Shown: positions 5,345 to 59,218 of the stretch, in pieces
Layout: every line of letters begins with the position of its first letter
How positions within the stretch are numbered: the first letter of the stretch is position 1
Source: Propionicicella superfundia DSM 22317
GTDB taxonomy: Bacteria > Actinomycetota > Actinomycetes > Propionibacteriales > Propionibacteriaceae
Length of the DNA: 64,000 nt
Reading direction: 5' to 3'
Assembly (NCBI RefSeq): GCF_000423465.1
Contig: NZ_AUIA01000011.1
Coordinates: forward strand, 62,001 to 126,000
Notes under the pieces: model-generated
Seen by the model: only the letters and a program-made list of their open reading frames with translations
Database searches by the model: none
What the model was told of the DNA's origin: nothing
Program-made: the position numbers and the translations under genes

Positions 5345-6451
5345 ATGGATCGGGACAATGTCCTGCTCACGCCGGGACCGCTGACGACGACTCTGCGCAC
5401 CAAGCTCGCGATGTTGCGCGACTGGGGCTCGTGGGACGCGGGCTTCAACGAGCTCACCGCTCGCGTGCGGGGCAGACTGCTGGACATCGTCCATGGCGGG
5501 GACACCCATGTGGTGGTGCCGCTCCAGGGGAGCGGGACCTTCAGCGTCGAGGCCGCCGTCGCCTCGGTGGTGCCGCGGGACGGCCACCTCCTGGTGCTGG
5601 ACAACGGCGCCTACTGCAGGCGCATGGGCCGGCTGGCGACGCTGATGGGACGACGGACGACGGTCTCTGTCCAGCCCGAGAACGCCCCGGTCGATCCGGA
5701 GGTCGTGGCCGGCCTGCTGGAGGCCGATCCGACGATCACGCACGTGGGCTACGTCCACTGCGAGACGGGGACAGGGGTCGTCAACCCGTTGCAGGAGGTG
5801 TCCGACCTGTGCCGGCGTACCGGCCGGGGACTCATCATCGACGCGATGAGCTCGTTCGGCGCTCTTCCGCTCGATGCCCGCGCGCTGCGGTTCGACGCGC
5901 TCGTCGCGGCGAGCGGCAAGTGCCTGGAGGGCGTGCCCGGCATGGGGTTCGTCCTCCTCCGTTCGGAGATCCTCGCCGCCTGCGAAGGACGCAGCCACTC
6001 CCTGTCCCTGGACCTGTACGACCAGTGGGCGTATATGGAGCGCACGGGACAGTGGCGTTTCACGCCGCCGACGCATGTCGTCGCCGCCCTGGACGAGGCC
6101 GTTGCCCAGTTCCTGGAGGAGGGGCAGCGGGAGCGGCTGGCCCGCTACACGGACAACCTCCGGACCCTTCTGGACGGGATGGGCGCGCTCGGCTTCCGGA
6201 CGTTCCTCGATCCCGCGGATCTGTCCCCGATCATCGTCACGTTCCACGCCCCGTCGGACCCGCGGTATGACTTCCGGACCCTGTACGAGGGGACGAGGCG
6301 GCGCGGCTTCATCCTCTACCCGGGCAAGCTGACCGAGGTCGAGACCTTCCGGGTCGGCTGCATCGGGGCCATCGGCCGCACCGAGATGGAGCAGGCCGTC
6401 GACGCGATCGCTCGCACGCTCGCCGAGGCCGGGGTCACCCGCGTCTCCTGA
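5345..6451 (+). CDS. phnW: 2-aminoethylphosphonate-pyruvate transaminase
   Basis: PLP-dependent class V aminotransferase of 368 aa. It begins with the family hallmark [10 protein letters not shown], has the phosphate-binding GSGTFSVEA region near residue 62, an [11 protein letters not shown] cofactor-binding Asp motif and the Schiff-base lysine Lys192 in [11 protein letters not shown]. PhnW converts 2-aminoethylphosphonate plus pyruvate into phosphonoacetaldehyde plus alanine, which would feed the PhnX-like hydrolase encoded on the opposite strand. The ATG at 5345 has a GGAG element nine bases upstream. Transcribed away from phnD, it completes an import and degradation locus without C-P lyase genes. 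Confidence 0.95.
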
Positions 6452-6557: not shown

Positions 6558-6727
6558 TGACCGCCAGGTTGTGAGGCATACCGGCCCGGTGAGGGCGACC
6601 CAGGGGAGATGACCGCCAGTCTGTGAGGCATACGGCACCTCCGCCGGGCCTGGTATGCCTCACAACCCGGCGGTCACCCACAGCGACCGGAGCAACCTGG
6701 CTGGTATGCCTCGCAACCTGGCTGGTA
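6558..6727. repeat. 170-bp palindromic element, copy A (four 25-bp motifs)
   Basis: Four copies of a 25-bp motif, core CCAGGTTGTGAGGCATACC, lie at 6558-6582 (forward), 6610-6634 (forward), 6652-6676 (reverse) and about 6703-6727 (reverse). Start-to-start distances are 52, 42 and 51 bp. A partial fifth GGTATGC follows at 6724. The same arrangement with the same distances recurs at 57137-57306. The element fills most of the 363-bp gap (6452-6814) between the convergent phnW and UDP-glucose dehydrogenase genes; the rest of that gap holds the phnW hairpin and no gene. The function is unknown. Confidence 0.85.
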
Positions 6728-6814: not shown

Positions 6815-8125
6815 TCACAGGGTCGCGGCGCGGCCCATCTGGACGACCTTCCAGCCCGCGGCCTGCCAGCGGGCGCGGTCGAGCTTGAGGCGCCCGTCGA
6901 TCAGCACCCTGTTCCTCACCAGCCCGGCGCAGTCGGCGGGATCGAGCTGGCGGAACAGCGGCCACTCGGTGAGATGGAGGACGAGCTCGGCGTCGCGCAG
7001 GCAGTCCTCGACGGTCTCGGCCTGGGTGAACGACGGGCCGGACACCTGCGCCTCGGGGTCGTAGATCCAGACGTCGGCGCCGGCCGCGGCGAGATGGTCG
7101 GCGACGGTCAGCGCCGGGCTGTTGCGGGTGTCGTCGGTGCCGGGTTTGAACGCCGCCCCGAGGACGGCCACCTTCCGCCCGGCGATGTCGCCGCCGAGTT
7201 GCGCGATCGCCAGCTCGGCCACCTCGGCGCGCTGCCCCTCGTTGATGGCCTCGACGGATGCGATGAAGTCGGCGAGGACGTCCACCCTCAGCTCCCCGGC
7301 CCGTGCGGCGAGCGCCCGGATGTCCTTCGGCAGGCAGCCCCCGCCGAAGCCCAGCCCCGCGTTGAGGAACTCCCTGCCGATCCGGGTGTCGTGGCCGAGG
7401 GCGTCCGCCAGCAGCGTCACGTCGCCACCGGCGGCCTGGCACATCTGCGCCATGGCGTTGATGAACGAGATCTTCGTGGCGAGGAAGGCGTTCGCCGCCA
7501 CCTTGATCAGCTCGGCGGTCGCGATGTCGCACTCCACGACGGGGACGCCGTCGCTGATCGGGATCGCGTACACCTCGCGCATCGTCTCGAGCGCCTGCGC
7601 GCTGCGGGTGCCGAGGACGATGCGGTCGGGGCTGAGGGTGTCGGAGACGGCGAACGCCTCGCGCAGGAACTCGGGATTCCACATCACCTCGACCCCGGCG
7701 CCCGGCGCGAGCCGGTCGAGGCGCTGCTGCAGGAGGGGCGCCGTCCCGACCGGGACGGTCGACTTGCCGGCGATGAGGGTGGGCCGCGTCAGCAGCGGGC
7801 CGAGCGACTCGACGACCGACCACACCTGCGACAGGTCCGCCGCGCCCGACTCCGACTGGGGCGTCCCGACGCACAGGAAGTGGACGTCGGCCCAGTCGGC
7901 GATCTCGCGATAGTCGGTGGTGAACCGCAGCCGGCCCGACGCGGTGTGCTTGGCGAGGAGCGGCTCGAGGCCCTCCTCGAAGATCGTGGAGTGGCCGGAC
8001 GCGAGGACCGCGACGCGGCCGGGATCGACGTCGACGCCGATGACCCGGTGCCCGAACTCCGCCATGCCCGCGGCATGAGCCGCGCCGAGATAGTTCGTGC
8101 CGATGACCGCGACATTCAATGGCAT
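6815..8125 (-). CDS. UDP-glucose/nucleotide-sugar 6-dehydrogenase family protein
   Basis: NAD-dependent nucleotide-sugar dehydrogenase of 436 aa. An N-terminal Rossmann domain begins with VAVIGTNYLG, the central domain contains NAFLATKISFIN with the conserved Lys, and the catalytic cysteine is Cys264 in GFGGGCLPKD. A C-terminal UDP-binding domain has GAAFKPGTDDTRNSP. The family oxidises UDP-glucose to UDP-glucuronate (or UDP-ManNAc to its uronate) for cell-surface polysaccharides. The start at 8125 has GGAAG ten bases upstream; an ATG three codons earlier is too close to that site. The usual GxGxxG is GTNYLG here, with Gly-Tyr replaced by Asn-Tyr, so the exact substrate is left open. Confidence 0.9.
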   Translation of the reverse strand: MPLNVAVIGTNYLGAAHAAGMAEFGHRVIGVDVDPGRVAVLASGHSTIFEEGLEPLLAKHTASGRLRFTTDYREIADWADVHFLCVGTPQSESGAADLSQVWSVVESLGPLLTRPTLIAGKSTVPVGTAPLLQQRLDRLAPGAGVEVMWNPEFLREAFAVSDTLSPDRIVLGTRSAQALETMREVYAIPISDGVPVVECDIATAELIKVAANAFLATKISFINAMAQMCQAAGGDVTLLADALGHDTRIGREFLNAGLGFGGGCLPKDIRALAARAGELRVDVLADFIASVEAINEGQRAEVAELAIAQLGGDIAGRKVAVLGAAFKPGTDDTRNSPALTVADHLAAAGADVWIYDPEAQVSGPSFTQAETVEDCLRDAELVLHLTEWPLFRQLDPADCAGLVRNRVLIDGRLKLDRARWQAAGWKVVQMGRAATL

Positions 8126-8463
8126 GGCGCCCATGCTTCCACAGGCGCGAGGAACGCGCGTCCCGGTGGACACCTACGGCCACGTCGCACGGATCGCCGC
8201 GCCCGAAGTCCTCGGTGCAGCCGGTCGGCGGCCCCGAGCCGGCATCGCCCCGCCGGCGCGCCCGGCCCGCGCCTGGTCGCGGCGGGCGCAGGAGTTCGCG
8301 CCCGATGCCTGGAGCAGATGACCGCCCAGGATGATGCACGCTGCCGCGAGCCTGGCGCAGCGGCTCTGGTGCAGGACGCCGCCGGACGTCGCGGAGCGTC
8401 CGGCGGATCGGGGGTCCGCTAGCCTGTAGAGGGTGAGTGACAGACGGTTGTCGACAGGTCCAC
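8126..8463. other. 338-bp gap; promoter and small upstream ORF for the CorC-like gene
   Basis: Most of this gap shows no gene. At its right end TAGCCT (8420-8425) resembles a -10 box. Seven bases later a GTG (8433) opens a 12-codon frame that ends with TGA at 8469-8471, overlapping the ATG (8464) of the next gene. A second GTG at 8437 is in frame with that gene and would extend it by nine residues. Confidence 0.45.
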
Positions 8464-31542: not shown

Positions 31543-32052
31543 ATGCGAAGAACACGCCCTTGTGGGAGCGGCTTTCCTGGCGGTCGGAGGCGGAGACGGG
31601 GATTCGCCGACCACTCCAACGCCATCGTGATCGCCGAGCCGACCGGCGGAGAGTCGGCCCGGACGGCGCCGGGCGGAGACGGTGCGGATGACTCCGCCCC
31701 CGTCCCGTACGTCACGATGCGGGTCACCAGAGTGCTCGGTGGAGGGGTTTCCGCGTCGGAGATCCAGGTGATCAGCCCCGGGGTGGACCACCGGACGGGC
31801 AGGCAGGTGCTCGTGAGCGGTGGGCCCTACCTGCTGTTCCTCGCGCCGGCGATGTATGCGGCCGACGACCCGGCGGGAGGCTATGTGGTGACGGGCGGCC
31901 CGGCCGGGCTGTACGCGGCGATCGAGCGCGGTCGCTTCGGCCGCGTCGATTCGTCGAGCCCGAAGCTCCCGTCGACGCTGAGCGGCTCCACGACCGACCT
32001 GCCCGAGATCACCAAGAGCGAGAAGCAGGTGCTCGCCGAAGGGCCGCGCTGA
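31543..32052 (+). CDS. hypothetical protein, probably a truncated secreted-protein remnant
   Basis: Frame of 169 codons. From about residue 22 it reads like a real domain (NAIVIAEPT, then YVTMRVTRVLGGG and GGPYLLFLAPAMY), but the first 20 residues are an arginine-rich string and no signal peptide, promoter or good ribosome-binding site is seen. The stop codon falls inside the first unit of a 61-bp tandem repeat, so both ends look disturbed. It may be a 5'-truncated relative of exported proteins whose start was lost. Expression is doubtful. Confidence 0.4.
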   Translation: MRRTRPCGSGFPGGRRRRRGFADHSNAIVIAEPTGGESARTAPGGDGADDSAPVPYVTMRVTRVLGGGVSASEIQVISPGVDHRTGRQVLVSGGPYLLFLAPAMYAADDPAGGYVVTGGPAGLYAAIERGRFGRVDSSSPKLPSTLSGSTTDLPEITKSEKQVLAEGPR

Positions 32053-32294
32053 CCCGGCGGGGCGCTGACTGCGGAACTTTGTACCGAATGCGGGCGCCGA
32101 AGGGCCGCGCTGACCCGGCGGGGCGCTGACTGCGGAACTTTGTACCGAATGCGGGCGCCGAAGGGCCCCGCTGATCCGGCGGGGCCCTGACCGCGGAGTT
32201 TCGTACCGAAAAGAGGTCGCATGAGGCCTCATTCGGTACAGAAGTCCGCGGCCAGCGACAGGGGCGCTCCGAGCGGCCGTCATTCGGTACAGAA
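32035..32294. repeat. 61-bp tandem duplication with inverted copies (repeat family 3)
   Basis: Units at 32035-32095 and 32096-32156 are identical over 61 bp; a third, diverged unit follows (32157-32217). Each carries a TTTGTACCGAATG-like core (32078-32090, 32139-32151, about 32200-32212). Two inverted cores, CATTCGGTACAGAA, lie at 32230-32243 and 32281-32294, 51 bp apart. The array fills the gap between the hypothetical gene and the convergent accC. It resembles the 170-bp element in design (forward copies, then reverse copies) but not in sequence. Confidence 0.9.
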
Positions 32295-44565: not shown

Positions 44566-44868
44566 GTCCTAGGGCTGCCGGCTCGTCGCGGTGGCGTCGA
44601 GGGGCGTGCCTTCGCGGCGTTTCGATGAAGGGCTGCCCAGGGTCTGTGAGACGTCCTCGGGCAGCGCGGTCACCCGCCTCGATCAGGCTTGCCCGCCGTT
44701 CCTCGTGGGGGTGCAACAGCGGCGACGAATCGCGTGGACCAGGAGTGACCCTGTCGCCTGTTAGCTTGCAGGCATTCAGCCCTGCCCCCTGTGTGAAAAC
44801 GGTTGCCCGCCACGGGGGTCCAGTGCGCTGGAGGCCGTGCGTTCGCGGCGTTTCGACGAAGGGGTGTT
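44566..44868. other. 303-bp gap with a decayed leader copy and the island promoter
   Basis: No intact gene. TTCGCGGCGTTTCGA at 44611-44625 repeats the sequence found just before the start codons of the secreted proteins at 44869 (44842-44856) and 47244 (47216-47230), so an older cassette leader seems to survive here without its gene. TAGCTT (44762-44767) is the probable -10 box of the next gene; the same promoter region is duplicated at about 47104-47140. Confidence 0.6.
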
Positions 44869-44970
44869 GTGTCTATCTCTACGACAAAGGTGCTGTTGCG
44901 ACCGGGAGTCCTTCTGGTCCTCGGCGTTCTGTTCGCCGTGTTCGTGCCGGCGAGTCCTGCCCATGCCGAA
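44730..44970 (+). repeat. duplicated leader segment, copy 1 (promoter, 5' UTR, signal peptide)
   Basis: About 240 bp, from GCGTGGACCAGGAGTGACC to the end of the signal-peptide codons, recurs at 47101-47345 with roughly 90 percent identity by eye. The homology stops where the mature protein begins. Confidence 0.85.
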
Positions 44971-45612
44971 GATCCTCTGGGTGAACTCGTGGCGGCGAAC
45001 CCGGGCGTGGCCCGCTCCGAAATGGCGGCCGCCGTGCGCGCCGAGGCTGCGCGAACCCGGGTCTCCGAGCGCACTGTCATCGCCAACGCCCTTGATGAGG
45101 CGCGCTCCTCGGCCGCGTCGGCGGCTGGGTCGGGTTCCCCGGCGCTCCGGTCATCGGGCGGCGGGGGAACTGTCGCACTCGGGGCCGCGCGTTACCCCGG
45201 CGACATCTTCGTCGCTCCCGCGGACACGGCAGGTATCCAGCACGGCCACGCGGGGATCTACCACGGGAAGGGGACCATCGTGGAGGCCCCCGGTGCGGGG
45301 AAGCGCAGCCGAAGCGCCGCGGCCTCTATCTATCCGGTCCGGAAGGGGGCCGTCAAGCAGTACGTGAAGGTCTCGTACAACGACGGGGCCAAGGCTGGGA
45401 AGTACGCTTACGACCACCTGCGGGGGAAGGAATACAACAACAACTTCGCCTTCAACAAGGATCCGAACGGGGCGAAGATGAACTGCTCCCAACTGGTGTG
45501 GGCCGCCTACAAGAAGGCGTTGAACGTCGATCTCGATGGAAACGGCGGGCCGGGCGTGTATCCGTACGACCTGAAGAACTCCAGCCGCACAGTCACCTAT
45601 CAGGTCATGTGA
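44869..45612 (+). CDS. secreted permuted papain-fold (YiiX/NlpC-like) cysteine hydrolase
   Basis: Exported protein of 247 aa. A Sec signal peptide ends PASPAHA at residue 33. After an Ala-rich helical spacer (to about residue 105), the catalytic domain has His127 in HGHAGIY and Cys206 in MNCSQLVWAAY; His before Cys is the order of the circularly permuted YaeF/YiiX (C92) group within the NlpC/P60 superfamily. Such enzymes cleave amide or peptide bonds, often in the cell wall. The GTG follows GAAGGGG. Its stop overlaps the ATG of the next lipoprotein (TGATG), a tight pairing like effector and partner. The leader is duplicated at 47.1-47.3 kb before a different protein. Confidence 0.8.
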   Translation: MSISTTKVLLRPGVLLVLGVLFAVFVPASPAHAEDPLGELVAANPGVARSEMAAAVRAEAARTRVSERTVIANALDEARSSAASAAGSGSPALRSSGGGGTVALGAARYPGDIFVAPADTAGIQHGHAGIYHGKGTIVEAPGAGKRSRSAAASIYPVRKGAVKQYVKVSYNDGAKAGKYAYDHLRGKEYNNNFAFNKDPNGAKMNCSQLVWAAYKKALNVDLDGNGGPGVYPYDLKNSSRTVTYQVM

Positions 45613-46874
45613 TGCGGAGGTGCGGGGTGGCGACGCGGAGTCGGTGTGTGTTTCGTCGCCTCGTCGCCTGCGTGGTCGCGGGGGTGATGGTCGCGGCGAC
45701 CGCGTCGTGTTCTGTGGTGGGCCCGCGGTTGGCGCGCTGGCGGATGCTCGCCGAGGGCGAGGCGCGGCTGGGCCCTGACGTGGCGATGGCTGTGTATGTC
45801 AGCCCGCCGAGCAGGGAGTTCGGGGCGCCGGGCTATGTGTTGCTCATCGACACGGCGGGGGAGGTGTCGGCGATCGAGACGGCGGGCATGGACGCTGCAC
45901 TGCTGACCTGGACGGCGGAGGGCATCTTCTTCTCCGACGAGGAGCGCGACTATCTGCTGAGCGAGTCCGGGTTGACCACGTGGGACAGCCCGAAGGCGAA
46001 CATGCAGAGTTCCGTGTTCGCGAAGCCGGATGGGACGGGCTATGTGAGTGTGTACAACGAGGGGTTCGCCGATCCGGACACCGAGGGCATGGGGTATATC
46101 GAGCAGGTGGTCGAGACCACGGCGGATCGGGTGACCCGCTACGACGTCGCCGGTTACAGCACGCTGACGGCCTGGTGTGGGTCGGCCTTGTACTCCGCGT
46201 TCGAGGTGACCGAGCCGTATGTCGGGCGTGCCGGGGCGGAGGGCGCGGTCGAGCGCGAGGTGGGGCCCTACTGGCCCGACATGCTGACGCAGCGCTACCC
46301 GCGGCCGGATTCGCCCGCCGAGGCGTTCCGGTCGGTGAGGCTGGGTGGCTACGGCGGCTACGCGCGGGATCCGGTTTGCCGTGCGGGCCGGATCCTGGCG
46401 ATAACGAGTGATCAGGGTGACACCCCTCCGCTGGTGGTGGAGTGGCCGACGGATGGCGGCAGGCCGGTCGAGCGCGTCCTCGTCGGGCCGGGCGATGAGC
46501 GCCTCGCTCTCGACCCCGAAGCGGCCGGCTGGACCGGGCGGATCGCGTCGTGGGCACCCGATGAGCACCAGGTGGTGTGGCACGGGGGCGATGGGGTCGT
46601 GCGCTCCACGGATATCACGACCGGACGCACTCGGGAGCTGTGGGACTCGGGCACGGAGCCGATCACCTCGGGCTACGACGACGTTGTCTTCGAAGGTGCG
46701 AACATCTATGTCTTCGACACCGATGACCCGGTGTCGCCGGACCGGGCGATGAGGCTGCGCGCCCACGATCTGCGCACCGGCCGGACGCGGGACGTCCTCA
46801 CCACGAGGCCGCGATTCGAGACGGTCGGGCCGACCCTGGTGCAGCGCGGCATCGCCGTCCGCCCAGGCTTATGA
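45612..46874 (+). CDS. large lipoprotein of unknown function, partner of the secreted hydrolase
   Basis: Lipoprotein of 420 aa. The signal peptide is unusually basic and ends in the lipobox TASC, lipidated Cys33. The mature part has many short strand-rich segments ending in aromatic residues (for example VLLIDTAGEVSAIET, ERDYLLSESGLTTWDS, GYVSVYNEGF, APDEHQVVWHGGDG), compatible with a beta-propeller, but no family was recognised. The ATG overlaps the hydrolase stop, so both are made together; a surface-anchored partner of a secreted hydrolase could act as inhibitor or immunity protein. Its TGA overlaps the ATG of a damaged second copy of the same gene. Confidence 0.7.
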   Translation: MRRCGVATRSRCVFRRLVACVVAGVMVAATASCSVVGPRLARWRMLAEGEARLGPDVAMAVYVSPPSREFGAPGYVLLIDTAGEVSAIETAGMDAALLTWTAEGIFFSDEERDYLLSESGLTTWDSPKANMQSSVFAKPDGTGYVSVYNEGFADPDTEGMGYIEQVVETTADRVTRYDVAGYSTLTAWCGSALYSAFEVTEPYVGRAGAEGAVEREVGPYWPDMLTQRYPRPDSPAEAFRSVRLGGYGGYARDPVCRAGRILAITSDQGDTPPLVVEWPTDGGRPVERVLVGPGDERLALDPEAAGWTGRIASWAPDEHQVVWHGGDGVVRSTDITTGRTRELWDSGTEPITSGYDDVVFEGANIYVFDTDDPVSPDRAMRLRAHDLRTGRTRDVLTTRPRFETVGPTLVQRGIAVRPGL

Positions 46875-47120
46875 GACGGAGGTGCGGGGTGGCGACGCGG
46901 AGTCGGTGCGTGTTTCGTCGCCTGCGTGGTCGCGGGGGCGATGGTCGCGGGGGCGATGGTCGCGGCGACCGCGTCGTGTTCTGTGGTGGGCCCGCGGTTG
47001 GCTCGCTGGCGGATGCTCGCCGAGGGCGAGGCGCGGCTGGGCCCTGACGTGGTGATGGCTGTGTATGTCAGCCCGCAGAGCAGCGAGTTCGGGGCGACGG
47101 TCGGCGTGGACCAGGAGTGA
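46871..47120 (+). pseudogene. truncated, frameshifted copy of the 45612-46874 lipoprotein gene
   Basis: The first 225 bp repeat the start of the preceding lipoprotein gene almost exactly. The ATG overlaps that gene's TGA. A deletion of eight bases after CGTCGCCT breaks the frame, and a 15-bp tandem repeat (GCGATGGTCGCGGGG, then GCGATGGTCGCGG) follows. Downstream, the original frame is open again through the TASC lipobox and about 45 mature residues, ending at TGA 47118-47120, where the sequence joins the duplicated cassette leader. It is a remnant of an extra partner gene. Confidence 0.85.
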
Positions 47121-47345
47121 CCCTGTCGCCTGTTAGCTTGCGGGTATTCAGCCCTGCCCCCTACGTGAAGACGGTTGCTCACCATTGGGGTCCAGCGCGC
47201 TGGAGAGGCTGTGTTTTCGCGGCGTTTCGATGAAACGGGTGTTGTGTCTATCTTCACGACAAAGGTGCTGTTGCGACCGGGAGTCCTTCTGGTCCTCGGC
47301 GTTCTGTTCGCCGTGTTCGTGCCGGCGAGTCCCGCCCATGCCGAG
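47101..47345 (+). repeat. duplicated leader segment, copy 2
   Basis: Second copy of the promoter, 5' UTR and signal-peptide coding segment at 44730-44970, including the -10 box and the TTCGCGGCGTTTCGA element (47216-47230). Homology ends after the AHAE codons. Confidence 0.85.
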
Positions 47346-47562
47346 GGTCGCGCGCGTTCGAGGATGGCGGCCGTCGTTGCAGCGATCGAGCGGGTGGATA
47401 AGACGCTGATCGAAAGCGCCGCCGACGTTCGAGTGCCACGCGCTGGGTGCATTGTTCGCCGGCCAGTGGAATCTTGAGAAGTTCCGCCCGAATCGGTCCG
47501 CGCACTGGTCATACGGTGTGAGTGTCCACCACTGCAACTGGACAACCGCGAATCGCTACTGA
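47244..47562 (+). pseudogene. broken secreted protein: shared signal peptide joined out of frame to a different C-terminus
   Basis: The GTG and 33-residue signal peptide (ending PASPAHA) match the hydrolase at 44869, but the following 43 residues differ and end at 47477. In the +1 frame from 47410 a protein-like C-terminus is open, with TFECHALGALFAG, WNLEKFRPN and HHCNWTTANRY, ending TGA at 47560-47562. The two parts must once have been in one frame, so a frameshift and probably an internal deletion destroyed the gene. The C-terminal part, with Cys-His and WNLE-RP patterns, recalls small secreted actinobacterial domains such as DUF2599, a tentative likeness only. The next gene starts 11 bp later, as expected for a partner. 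Confidence 0.7.
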
Positions 47563-56578: not shown

Positions 56579-57022
56579 TCAGTCGTCGTCGCGGCCGGCC
56601 TCGCCCTGCGGGTCGATGGTCTCGATGGACAGCCCGGTGAGGGCGGACAACTGCTCCACGATCGTCCGGTACACGAGGCGCTGCAGGTCGCGACGCCCGT
56701 CGGCGCGATGTTCGAGCGGTCGCCGGAACACGACTACCTGGGCGGGGTGGTCGCGGGTCGGCTGGACGGCCGCCGCGAGCAGCGCCCGGTCGCCGGCCCA
56801 TTGCGGCTCGAACTCCGGGACGTCGGCGACGCCGATCTCCACGTCGCGCAGCGCGTCGGGGCAGGACTTCTCGATGCGTCGCACGGCGTCCTCGACACAC
56901 GACACGAAGAACACCGACTTCCGTTCGTTGCGGCGCAACGGCACCGGAGCGCGGGTGAGGGGGTTCGGTCCGGCGATCGGTCCGCGCATCCCGCGGCCGT
57001 GACGATCCCTCGTGCGCGACAT
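56579..57022 (-). CDS. zincin-like metallopeptidase-family protein lacking HExxH
   Basis: Protein of 147 aa matching the actinobacterial metallopeptidase-family/zincin-like small proteins next to whiB2 and DUF3499 (Rv3259-like context). The N-terminus is basic (RDRHGRGMRGPI) and the body runs VVVFRRPLEHRA and LVYRTIVEQLSALTGL. At the place where active relatives carry HExxH the sequence is VEQLS, so both zinc-binding histidines are missing and catalysis is unlikely. The ATG lies six bases after TAGGCT (57029-57034, minus strand), leaderless. Divergent from the DUF3499 gene across a 458-bp gap. Confidence 0.8.
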   Translation of the reverse strand: MSRTRDRHGRGMRGPIAGPNPLTRAPVPLRRNERKSVFFVSCVEDAVRRIEKSCPDALRDVEIGVADVPEFEPQWAGDRALLAAAVQPTRDHPAQVVVFRRPLEHRADGRRDLQRLVYRTIVEQLSALTGLSIETIDPQGEAGRDDD

Positions 57023-57480
57023 GCCTTCAGCCTATTACCCGGTCCGTGCGGGCTCGGGGCGGGAGCCCGGCTCGTCTTCGGCCCGGGGAGTCGACGGCAC
57101 CGTCGCCTCGACCTCCGGGAGCGCTCGCCCCGGCGCTGACCGCCAGGTTGTGCGGCACACCGGTCCGGGTGCGGCGACCGACGAGCCATGACCGCCACCT
57201 TGCGAGGCATATGACACCGGATCCGGACCGCGTATGCCTCACAACCTGGCGGTCAGCTCGTACGGGTCGCGGTGGCGCGCTGGTATGCCTCACAACCTGG
57301 CGGTCACGTCCGATCGGGCGCGCGGGATGCCCGTTCCCGTCGCCCGGTCCGGAGCTCCCGACCCGACGGACCGCGACGACCGCGAACAGCCGTCGGCGAG
57401 GCGTCGAGAGTCTCCAGCGGGGGTAGACACTCACGGCCGGCTTGGCGTCGTCGGGCACCTCGCCGCTGTACCGTGAGCCC
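57023..57480. other. 458-bp divergent gap between the zincin-like and DUF3499 genes
   Basis: It holds the zincin-like gene's -10 box, the second 170-bp palindromic element (57137-57306) and about 170 bp with no recognisable feature; TAGACA near 57424 is a weak promoter candidate for the DUF3499 gene. No gene was found; the open frames there are produced by the repeats. Confidence 0.6.
57137..57306. repeat. 170-bp palindromic element, copy B (four 25-bp motifs)
   Basis: Motif copies at 57137-57161 and 57189-57213 (forward) and 57231-57255 and 57282-57306 (reverse), core CCAGGTTGTGAGGCATACC. Start-to-start distances are 52, 42 and 51 bp, exactly as in copy A at 6558-6727, and total length is also 170 bp. 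The spacers between motifs in the two arms are partly complementary too, so the whole element is one large imperfect palindrome. Confidence 0.85.
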
Positions 57481-57856: not shown

Positions 57857-59218
57857 ATGATTAACGACGACATCTTCAAGGCCAACGACATTCGCGGTGT
57901 CGTCGGTGGGGCCGAGCCGCAGTGGGACGAGGACGGTGCCTTCGCCATCGGTGCGGCCTACGTGCACGTGTTCGGGCTGCAGGGCAAGCGCTTCGTGATG
58001 AGCCGGGACATGCGGGTGAGCGGGCCGCAGATGTCCGCGGCGTTCGCCGACGGCGCCCGATCCCAGGGCGCGAGCGTGGTCGACATCGGCCTGGCCAGCA
58101 CCGACGAACTGTGGTTCGCCTCGGGGCATCTCGGGATCCACGGCGTCCAGTTCTCGGCGAGTCACAACCCCGCGACGTACAACGGCATCAAGTTCTGCCT
58201 GCCCTTCGCCGCGCCGGTCACTCCCGATGCGCTCCTCGAACTCACCGCGGCGTGCCGCACGGTGTTCCCGCCGGTCGACGAGCCGGGCACGCGCACCGAG
58301 CAGGATCTGCTCGGCGCCTACGCCGCGTACCTCCACGGGCTGGTCGACCTCTCCGGGATCCGCCGGCTGCGCGTCGTCGTGGACGCCGGCAACGGCATGG
58401 CCGGGTACACCACCCCGGCTGTCCTCGGGCCCCTCGGCATCGACATCGTCGGTCTCTTCATGGAGCTCGACGGCAGTTTCCCGAACCACCCGCCGAACCC
58501 GCTGGTGCCCGAGAACCTGCTGGACGCCCAGGCTGCCGTGCGGGAGCACGCGGCCGATCTCGCCCTCGTCTTCGACGGCGACGCCGACCGGTGCTTCATC
58601 ATCGACGAGCGCGGCGAGGTGGTGAGCCCGTCGATCGTCACGGCGCTCATCGCGAGCCAGGAGCTGCGGCGCGAGCCGGGCGGCACCATCGTCATCAACA
58701 CCATCACGTCGCGGTCGGTCGCCGAGGTGGTGTCGGCGGCCGGTGGCACCACCGTCGTGTCCCGCGTCGGCCACACGTACGTGAAGGCCCTGATGGCCGG
58801 CCACGACGCGGTCTTCGGCGGCGAACACTCGGCGCACTACTACTTCCGGGACTTCTGGGGAGCCGACACGGGCATGCTCGCGGCGCTCCACGTGCTCGCC
58901 ATCGCCGGACGCTCCGAACGGCCGCTGTCGGAGCTCGTCGCCGAGTACTCCTCCTACGCGGCGTCCGGTGAGATCAACTCGGAGGTCGCCGACGCACGCG
59001 CCGTCATGGACGCGGTCGGGCTGGCCTTCGCCGGCCGCGGCGAGGCGGACTGGTCCGACGGGCTGACGATCTCGGGGCCCGACTGGTGGGTGAACGTCCG
59101 ACCGTCCAACACCGAGCCGCTGCTGCGGCTGAACGTCGAGGCGCGCACGGCCGCCCACATGCAGGCACTGCGCGACGAGACGCTCGCGATCATCCGGGGA
59201 GGCACCGATGTCGCCTGA
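57857..59218 (+). CDS. manB: phosphomannomutase/phosphoglucomutase
   Basis: Alpha-D-phosphohexomutase of 453 aa that converts mannose-6-phosphate to mannose-1-phosphate for ManC. FKANDIRGVVGG opens the protein, SASHNPATYNGIKF holds the phosphoserine loop, DGDADRC is the metal-binding loop, GGEHSAHYYF the sugar-binding loop and RPSNTEPLLRLNVE the phosphate-binding loop. The ATG lies eight bases after TAGGCT (57843-57848), leaderless. Overlaps the Trm112-like gene. Confidence 0.96.
   Translation: MINDDIFKANDIRGVVGGAEPQWDEDGAFAIGAAYVHVFGLQGKRFVMSRDMRVSGPQMSAAFADGARSQGASVVDIGLASTDELWFASGHLGIHGVQFSASHNPATYNGIKFCLPFAAPVTPDALLELTAACRTVFPPVDEPGTRTEQDLLGAYAAYLHGLVDLSGIRRLRVVVDAGNGMAGYTTPAVLGPLGIDIVGLFMELDGSFPNHPPNPLVPENLLDAQAAVREHAADLALVFDGDADRCFIIDERGEVVSPSIVTALIASQELRREPGGTIVINTITSRSVAEVVSAAGGTTVVSRVGHTYVKALMAGHDAVFGGEHSAHYYFRDFWGADTGMLAALHVLAIAGRSERPLSELVAEYSSYAASGEINSEVADARAVMDAVGLAFAGRGEADWSDGLTISGPDWWVNVRPSNTEPLLRLNVEARTAAHMQALRDETLAIIRGGTDVA

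What the first reader, a model, noticed from the sequence alone, without database searches (positions are those of the whole stretch)
6558..6727. 170-bp palindromic element with helically phased 25-bp motifs, present twice in the window
Copies at 6558-6727 and 57137-57306 each contain four motif copies (two forward, two reverse) with identical start-to-start distances of 52, 42 and 51 bp and identical total length, although the spacers have diverged. These distances are close to 5, 4 and 5 helical turns, so bound proteins would sit on one face of the DNA. One copy is between convergent genes and the other between divergent genes, so a simple terminator role does not fit. It could be a mobile palindromic (MITE or REP-like) element, a chromosome-organising protein site, or a structured RNA.
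Basis: partly seen in the sequence, partly recalled or inferred. Interest (0 to 1): 0.75.

Follow-up and report, generated by a model that had tools for sequence, protein, structure and literature searches.

The report
Nuclease-linked four-site intergenic repeat element
The two repeats in this window belong to a family of about 170-bp, four-site DNA elements scattered between genes, and their motif types go with particular DNA-cutting proteins whose own genes carry a copy, which points to an undescribed pairing of a nuclease with dispersed target sites inside bacterial chromosomes.

Summary
The genome (G000) has 33 intact four-site elements plus 3 remnants; sites lie 51-52, 43-44 and 51-52 bp apart. 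Spacers do not covary, so a hairpin RNA is unlikely; no target-site duplication was found. In two other genera the spacing stays 51/43/51 while the ~23-bp motif changes.

The key: a ~320-aa protein (AbiEi-like N-terminus, DUF559/Vsr-like nuclease C-terminus) is flanked by elements in G000. Of 62 homologue loci in three genera (two identical), 61 carry a quadruplet at score >=72 (57 at >=78), 56 at the nuclease stop codon, mostly with a motif of their own; 1 of 131 other genes does. A geometry-only search found 110 quadruplets in 198 genomes, all in two of those genera, against 5 control hits. Of 55 dispersed quadruplets, 41 match best one beside a nuclease of their own genome (label permutation mean 3.5, maximum 22). 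Motif distance tracks the protein, most strongly residues 1-60.

Best reading: a REPIN/RAYT-like pairing built on an unrelated nuclease. The association is well supported; mobilisation is inferred.

The parts
6558..6727 (.). quadruplet element, copy 1 (170 bp), between convergent genes 5345-6451(+) and 6815-8134(-)
6558..6581 (+). site 1 of copy 1
   Evidence: 0 mismatches to the 24-mer
6610..6633 (+). site 2 of copy 1
   Evidence: 2 mismatches
6653..6676 (-). site 3 of copy 1
   Evidence: 1 mismatch
6704..6727 (-). site 4 of copy 1, outer end decayed
57137..57306 (.). quadruplet element, copy 2 (170 bp), between divergent genes 56579-56989(-) and 57857-59218(+)
57137..57160 (+). site 1 of copy 2
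   Evidence: 2 mismatches
57189..57212 (+). site 2 of copy 2
57232..57255 (-). site 3 of copy 2
   Evidence: 0 mismatches
57283..57306 (-). site 4 of copy 2
   Evidence: 0 mismatches

Best explanation
The element is the four-site target of a cognate DNA-binding nuclease. The nuclease (about 320 aa; AbiEi-like winged-helix region at the N-terminus, DUF559/Vsr-like PD-(D/E)XK region at the C-terminus) usually carries one copy at its own stop codon, and further copies with the same kind of motif lie between genes elsewhere in the same genome. Shown here by sequence: the association, the fixed 51/43/51 geometry, differing motifs per nuclease, the cognate match of most dispersed copies examined, and presence/absence of units at some orthologous sites. 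Inferred: one nuclease molecule binds each ~23-bp site, as AbiEi-type proteins do; the fixed spacing places four nuclease domains in one complex; the nuclease cuts at or near a quadruplet, and rare repair or gene conversion copies quadruplets to new intergenic places and keeps their motifs in step with the nuclease. It would thus work like the RAYT/REPIN pair, with an unrelated enzyme and a double-stranded four-site target.
For: Quadruplet at 61 of 62 nuclease loci at score >=72, 57 at >=78; 56 at the stop codon, 8 upstream, 3 both; two of the 62 loci are identical. At the stop-codon position 56 of 62 score >=72 against 3 of 20 distant paralogues and 1 of 131 other genes in the same loci; at >=78, 53 of 62 against 0 of 131. 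In G000 the nuclease gene is flanked on both sides. Matches above 300 bits occur only in genera g1, g7, g9 among the 40 genomes searched; ten genomes of other genera reach at most 134 bits. Geometry-only pattern: 110 hits, all in g7 (7 of 7 genomes) and g9 (11 of 30), 0 in the other 161 genomes of the family (G000 among them, whose motif ends differently), 5 hits for the reversed control. Cognate match: 41 of 55, permutation mean 3.5, maximum 22; for copies found with the G000-derived model, 53 of 60. Motif distance correlates with nuclease residues 1-60 (r 0.365), 61-110 (0.246), 111-210 (0.316), 211-320 (0.211); partial 1-60 given 211-320 0.34, the reverse 0.17. AbiEi profiles match residues ~20-150 at up to 2.6e-12; DUF559/MTES_1575 profiles and PDB 3hrl (E 7e-4) match the C-terminus. 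AbiEi and Rv2827c bind 23-bp inverted sites, Rv2827c four of them (PMC7319586, passages). Dispersed copies are intergenic: 33 of 33 in G000, counting the two beside the nuclease, and 58 of 58 examined elsewhere. Orthologous empty sites exist.
Against: No binding, cutting or movement was shown. No target duplication. The clearest recent duplication (G173) is not cut at element ends, and that assembly is 9% contaminated. One orthologous intergenic region of G104 and G105 holds a quadruplet in both, each resembling its own species' motif (the G105 one scores only 81), which fits in-place turnover as well as movement. Nuclease loci are often at conserved places, so the gene itself is not very mobile. 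14 of 55 dispersed copies match a foreign nuclease's quadruplet better, and relatedness within a genome inflates the 41. The motifs of G173 and G104 can form small ssDNA hairpins (z -2.3 to -4.6), a REP-like trait. Wrong spacings tried as decoys reach 85 at most over whole loci, so the lowest-scoring quadruplets (72-77 at four loci) may be chance.
Confidence: 0.6

Rival explanations
1. Domesticated host function: the nuclease-derived DNA-binding protein uses the dispersed quadruplets as fixed chromosomal sites (nucleoid organisation, transcription ends or replication-linked roles), and sites follow its changing specificity in place.
For: Sites are far better conserved than spacers in elements that are on average about 71% identical; strongly uneven spread over contigs (1 intact copy on the 1.02-Mb contig with a dif-like site, none on the parS contig, 7 on a 145-kb contig); a shared G104/G105 position with different motifs; preference for convergent gene ends, 17 of 32 element-bearing gaps (partial copies included) against 13 of 119 background gaps of at least 50 bp.
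Against: A G108 quadruplet and a G006 quadruplet have no counterpart in the orthologous region of G105 and G104 (best scores 60; these regions also differ by a predicted gene); catalytic-type residues of the nuclease region are conserved in the alignment of 60.
Confidence: 0.2
2. Conflict or defence system: the AbiEi-like nuclease is a toxin, restriction-like or addictive activity, and quadruplets beside the gene and elsewhere are operator, sink or self-marking sites that keep it in check.
For: AbiEi homology; AbiEi-type proteins autoregulate through 23-bp inverted repeats (PMC7319586, passages); several divergent paralogues per genome, some broken; at one orthologous locus the nuclease changes faster (mean identity 0.63) than its neighbours (0.78 and 0.86).
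Against: An operator would be expected upstream, yet 56 of 62 are at the stop codon; defence does not by itself explain about 30 dispersed copies in G000.
Confidence: 0.13
3. Conventional miniature transposon (IR/DR type) or REP/REPIN of a known transposase, the nuclease association being secondary.
For: Dispersed, intergenic, terminal inverted sites, conserved sites with variable middle; small hairpins in the motifs of G173 and G104; Y1 transposase present in 6 of 20 genomes, all g9.
Against: No target duplication; Y1 transposase absent from 14 of the 20 genomes searched, among them the element-bearing G000, G006, G104, G107 and G160; no hairpin signal in the G000 motif; one nuclease family adjoins the element in all three genera.
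Confidence: 0.05
4. Structured RNA or bidirectional terminator made by the long palindrome.
For: Strong predicted folding of both window copies (z -8.3 and -10.4); many copies at convergent gene ends.
Against: No within-element covariation of spacers or sites after orientation (1873, 3997 and 2008 of 5000 permutations reach the observed values, n 29); rigid spacing that a hairpin does not need; no Rfam match in the window at the gathering threshold.
Confidence: 0.02

Closest known systems
REPIN / RAYT (REP-associated tyrosine transposase)
   Same: A chromosomal nuclease gene with cognate repeats beside it and dispersed in extragenic space; inverted conserved sites with less conserved spacers; several families in one genome, tied to specific enzymes (PMC3116915, passages).
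   Different: Enzyme is AbiEi-like plus DUF559/Vsr-like, not HUH Y1; four ~23-bp sites with fixed 51/43/51 spacing instead of two REPs; no spacer covariation.
AbiE type IV toxin-antitoxin operators (AbiEi, Rv2827c)
   Same: 23-bp sites in inverted pairs; Rv2827c has four (PMC7319586, passages); AbiEi-like N-terminus.
   Different: Gaps between 24-bp sites are 27-28, 19-20 and 27-28 bp in G000 instead of 3 (AbiEi) or 13 and 4 (Rv2827c); the nuclease domain is on the same chain; sites sit mostly at the gene's 3' end and across the genome.
DUF559 / MTES_1575 (Vsr-fold) nuclease domains
   Same: C-terminal domain.
   Different: No repeat association came up in the listings of my searches.
IR/DR transposon ends (Sleeping Beauty, Tn7-like; recalled, no call)
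   Same: Two direct sites at each end, in inverted arrangement.
   Different: No gene-bearing version with two sites at each end was seen among the elements found, and no target duplication; DDE transposases were not searched for.

Membership tests
REPIN/RAYT | Cognate Y1 (HUH) tyrosine transposase in the genome | tested here: not met
   PF01797 absent in G000, G006, G104, G107, G160 and 9 more; present in 6 of 20 genomes, all g9, among them G168 and G173
REPIN/RAYT | Inverted sites and spacer pair as a hairpin with compensatory changes | tested here: not met
   G000 elements:
REPIN/RAYT | Single motif forms a small hairpin | tested here: inconclusive
   not in G000, weak in G006 and G160, above shuffles in G173 and G104
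REPIN/RAYT | Cognate repeat next to the enzyme gene and dispersed in extragenic space | tested here: met
   in kind, with another enzyme:
REPIN/RAYT | Mobilisation by the enzyme | not testable with these tools
   needs an experiment
MITE / IR-DR transposon | Target-site duplication | tested here: not met
   mean longest flank match 1.88 against 1.95 permuted
MITE / IR-DR transposon | Autonomous copy with transposase between the two ends | tested here: inconclusive
   none among elements found in G000, but the nuclease gene lies between two whole elements there
AbiE type IV toxin-antitoxin | AbiEi-type DNA-binding region | tested here: met
   PADLOC AbiEi models, best 2.6e-12; Pfam AbiEi_4 below its cut-off
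AbiE type IV toxin-antitoxin | Adjacent AbiEii/DUF1814 toxin gene | not tested
   neighbours were compared with each other but not scanned for it
DUF559/MTES_1575 nuclease | Domain profile and catalytic-type residues | tested here: met
   PF04480 above its cut-off in 2 of 4 proteins, PF18741 below its cut-off in all 4; PD, E.DG and K conserved
Structured RNA | Covariation | tested here: not met
   no Rfam match in the window

The most novel reading that the evidence does not exclude
An intragenomic drive: a nuclease with fast-changing sequence specificity cuts or marks its four-site targets, and break-induced copying both spreads quadruplets to new intergenic sites and rewrites old ones, so that one enzyme and tens of dispersed sites change their motif together, a bacterial counterpart of a PRDM9-like chase.
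Probability: 0.3. Interest if true: 0.92.

Novelty: categorically new. Interest (0 to 1): 0.85.

Why it matters
My searches found no paper on a function for proteins that join an AbiEi-like part to a DUF559-type nuclease. This gives one subfamily a concrete, testable DNA target that can be read off the gene's own 3' end, and suggests a second enzyme type that may keep families of dispersed repeats in bacterial chromosomes. About sixty natural enzyme-motif pairs also offer a ready set for learning how such a winged-helix region chooses ~23-bp sites.

Tried and rejected
Hairpin RNA: rejected by permutation tests. Target duplications: none. RAYT: absent in G000 and 13 other genomes of 20. The single matches in a named Acetobacteraceae MAG (L061) and a viral contig (L062) are lone motifs without the other three sites and are treated as chance. 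Motif searches in relatives found little: none in 36 other genomes, 1-3 matches in 5 of 197 others, some of which, in G173, later proved to be elements; only the sequence model R1 revealed relatives with other motifs. R1 also gave weak hits (E 5e-5 to 0.01) in other genera and families (33 of 391 genomes matched in all, the true ones included; G128); I took these for chance and did not examine them further, apart from fetching and reading one in G054, and only 6 candidates per genome were scored. Distant paralogues of the nuclease: 3 of 20 reach 72 at the stop codon, maximum 78; with free spacing 21 of them, one in G000, give best scores of 71-99 at other geometries (L235 highest), not followed. 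The class-wide nuclease search (1 of 394 genomes, G000) scored 5 candidates per genome. Viral contigs hold only three distant C-terminal relatives. NCBIfam: no match for 5 proteins; PHROGs: nothing convincing. Literature: 9 searches listed no paper on this association; most subscription papers are not held. Passages were seen of PMC7319586, PMC3710099 and PMC3116915; the rest as listings only. Structure prediction was not tried: its stated rule does not list loci from the genome search or the fetch from genomes.

Two of the 62 nuclease loci (L182, L183) are identical DNA.

The Sleeping Beauty, Tn7, PRDM9 and dif comparisons are recalled.

Full report
CHECK. The two copies are real. The window is G000:C4:62001-126000 of a 3.62-Mb genome in 23 contigs. 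That genome holds 76 motif matches within 3 mismatches and none for the reversed motif. They group into 33 intact four-site elements and 3 partial ones; the sequence model R1 finds the same set and no further full element, with 150 of 5071 first-look candidates scored (two hits at E 0.07 were not followed). Spacer lengths never differ by more than 1 bp. Elements are on average about 71% identical under lenient scoring, with a maximum of 87%, while sites carry 35-41 bits each. Diverged copies with well-kept sites speak for lasting selection on the sites.

NOT AN RNA. Both window copies fold strongly, as any inverted array would. But left and right spacers of one element pair no better than those of different elements: before orientation 4987 of 5000 permutations, and after orientation (29 elements) 1873 of 5000, reach the observed value. 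The same holds for the paired sites.

WHERE. None of the 33 intact copies overlaps a predicted gene by more than 30 bp, although only 8% of placements in the window are gene-free by that rule. 17 of 32 gaps that bear an intact or partial copy are convergent, against 13 of 119 background gaps of at least 50 bp in the same loci. Spread is uneven: contig C1 (1.02 Mb, with a dif-like site) has one intact copy, C5 (with the only parS match) none, and C7 (145 kb) seven. Genes were called with my own codon-usage script.

RELATIVES. Motif searches find almost nothing outside G000: none in 36 other genomes, and 1-3 matches in 5 of 197 others, some of which, in G173, later proved to be elements. R1 finds relatives in genera g7 and g9; its weak hits in other genera were taken for chance. 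In the g7 and g9 stretches the motif is different but, with spacing left free between 25 and 80 bp, 31 of 34 give 50-52/43/51-52; the exceptions are L086 and L087, cut by a contig end, and L119. One genome (G104) has several motif types, and the four sites of an element resemble each other.

THE PARTNER. Comparing genes around elements between genomes showed one gene family beside the element in four genomes. In G000 it is C3:386857-387813(-), with one element at its stop codon and one upstream. It has an AbiEi-like N-terminal part and a DUF559/MTES_1575 C-terminal part related to PDB 3hrl, with conserved PD, E.DG and K residues. Of 40 genomes searched, matches above 300 bits occur in 23, all in g1, g7 and g9; the ten genomes of other genera have at most 134 bits. 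I examined 62 of the 63 such loci; a fragment (G105:C229) was left out. L182 and L183 are identical DNA, and L178 has an internal stop. A motif-agnostic scan finds a quadruplet at 61 of 62 at score >=72: 56 within -34 to +41 of the stop codon and 8 upstream, 3 having both; none at L188. At >=78 it is 57 of 62; L169 (minus-strand gene), L207, L209 and L218 fall between 72 and 77. At the stop position 56 of 62 score at least 72, against 3 of 20 distant paralogues (maximum 78) and 1 of 131 other genes; at 78 or more, 53 of 62 against 0 of 131. Decoy spacings scanned over whole loci reach 85 at most. In G000 and G173 the element's first bases supply the stop codon.

CENSUS AND COGNACY. A geometry-only pattern found 110 quadruplets in 18 of 198 family genomes, all in g7 and g9; the reversed pattern gave 5 hits in 198. 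It finds only 15 of 62 known gene-adjacent ones and misses G000 and G173, whose motifs end differently, so 110 is a floor. The listing showed only part of the places. Of 55 dispersed ones read from it, 41 are most similar to a quadruplet beside a nuclease of their own genome, among 64 such quadruplets; label permutation gives a mean of 3.5 and a maximum of 22 in 2000. In G165 two motif families match two different nucleases, and in G104 four match four. With R1-found copies the count is 53 of 60, leaving out elements beside nucleases, L087 and L119. Shared ancestry within a genome contributes to these counts. Motif distance follows the protein (whole r 0.40), most for residues 1-60 (0.365) and least for 211-320 (0.211); the correlations are modest, partly because motif distances are saturated.

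HISTORY. Many nucleases group by locus across species, so the gene is largely inherited in place. At one locus shared by six g7 species the nuclease (mean identity 0.63) changes faster than its neighbours (0.78, 0.86), and its quadruplet motif changes too. There are also gains or losses: the upstream quadruplet of L162 is absent at five orthologous sites, in a stretch about 310-330 bp longer than theirs; the nuclease unit of G105:C113 (a broken gene) is absent between the same genes in G108; a dispersed quadruplet of G108 and one of G006 are absent in G105 and G104, in regions that also differ by a predicted gene. Against simple movement, one intergenic region of G104 and G105 carries a quadruplet in both, each resembling its own species' motif type (the G105 one scores 81). 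Outside G000, 58 of 58 dispersed quadruplets scoring 85 or more in fetched loci are intergenic: 32 convergent, 20 tandem, 6 divergent. G173 holds what look like two nearly identical copies at two places, read from four contig ends of an assembly with 9% contamination; the shared stretch runs past the element. Patchwise identity between G000 elements (L042 pair; a 74-bp half copy in L048) suggests conversion.

MECHANISM. AbiEi-type proteins bind 23-bp inverted sites, and Rv2827c binds four (PMC7319586, passages seen). The simplest model is one nuclease molecule per site, held in register by 51/43/51 bp, forming a four-nuclease complex. I infer that rare cutting and repair spreads and homogenises quadruplets; movement by the enzyme is likewise what was proposed for RAYT and REPINs (PMC3116915, passages seen). 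Binding, cutting and movement are not shown. Host use or a conflict system remain live rivals.

NOVELTY. It fails two REPIN/RAYT membership tests (wrong enzyme, no spacer covariation in G000), although it behaves like that system and some motifs can form small hairpins. The searches named under Tried and rejected found no report of it.

Noticed in passing
L031:3881-4098, L049:5150-5310 and 7622-7918, L054:5125-5306, L057:3940-4218, L059:4582-4805, L045:4584-4679: A second family of repeats in G000 (mostly 82-93% identical blocks, partly as tandem units) lies near several quadruplets.
   Followed up: no
window 32034-32216: Three tandem 61-bp units, two identical and one 82%.
   Followed up: no
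window 44721-47349: Duplicated blocks of 113-159 bp at 88-96% identity, about 1.3 and 2.4 kb apart.
   Followed up: no
L225, L234, L236 (upstream of distant nuclease paralogues): An inverted pair of ~22-bp sites (start-to-start 34-38 bp) lies upstream of the gene, resembling an AbiEi operator; possibly the ancestral arrangement.
   Followed up: partly
L086/L087 and L098/L099 (G173): Contig ends that look like two nearly identical quadruplets at two places; shared stretch is 163 bp on one side and about 210 bp on the other, ending outside the element; assembly 9% contaminated.
   Followed up: partly
G000:C1:535665 and G000:C5:92792: A dif-like site (2 mismatches to a recalled pattern) and a single perfect parS; C1 has one intact element and C5 none.
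   Followed up: partly
L218 (G000:C3:436084-437037): A second nuclease of G000 with a weak quadruplet (score 76) at its stop codon; dispersed copies of that motif were not searched for.
   Followed up: partly
L182 (G167:C61) and L183 (G168:C24): The two fetched 4.9-kb loci are identical, so the two genomes may share a strain or a misplaced contig.
   Followed up: no
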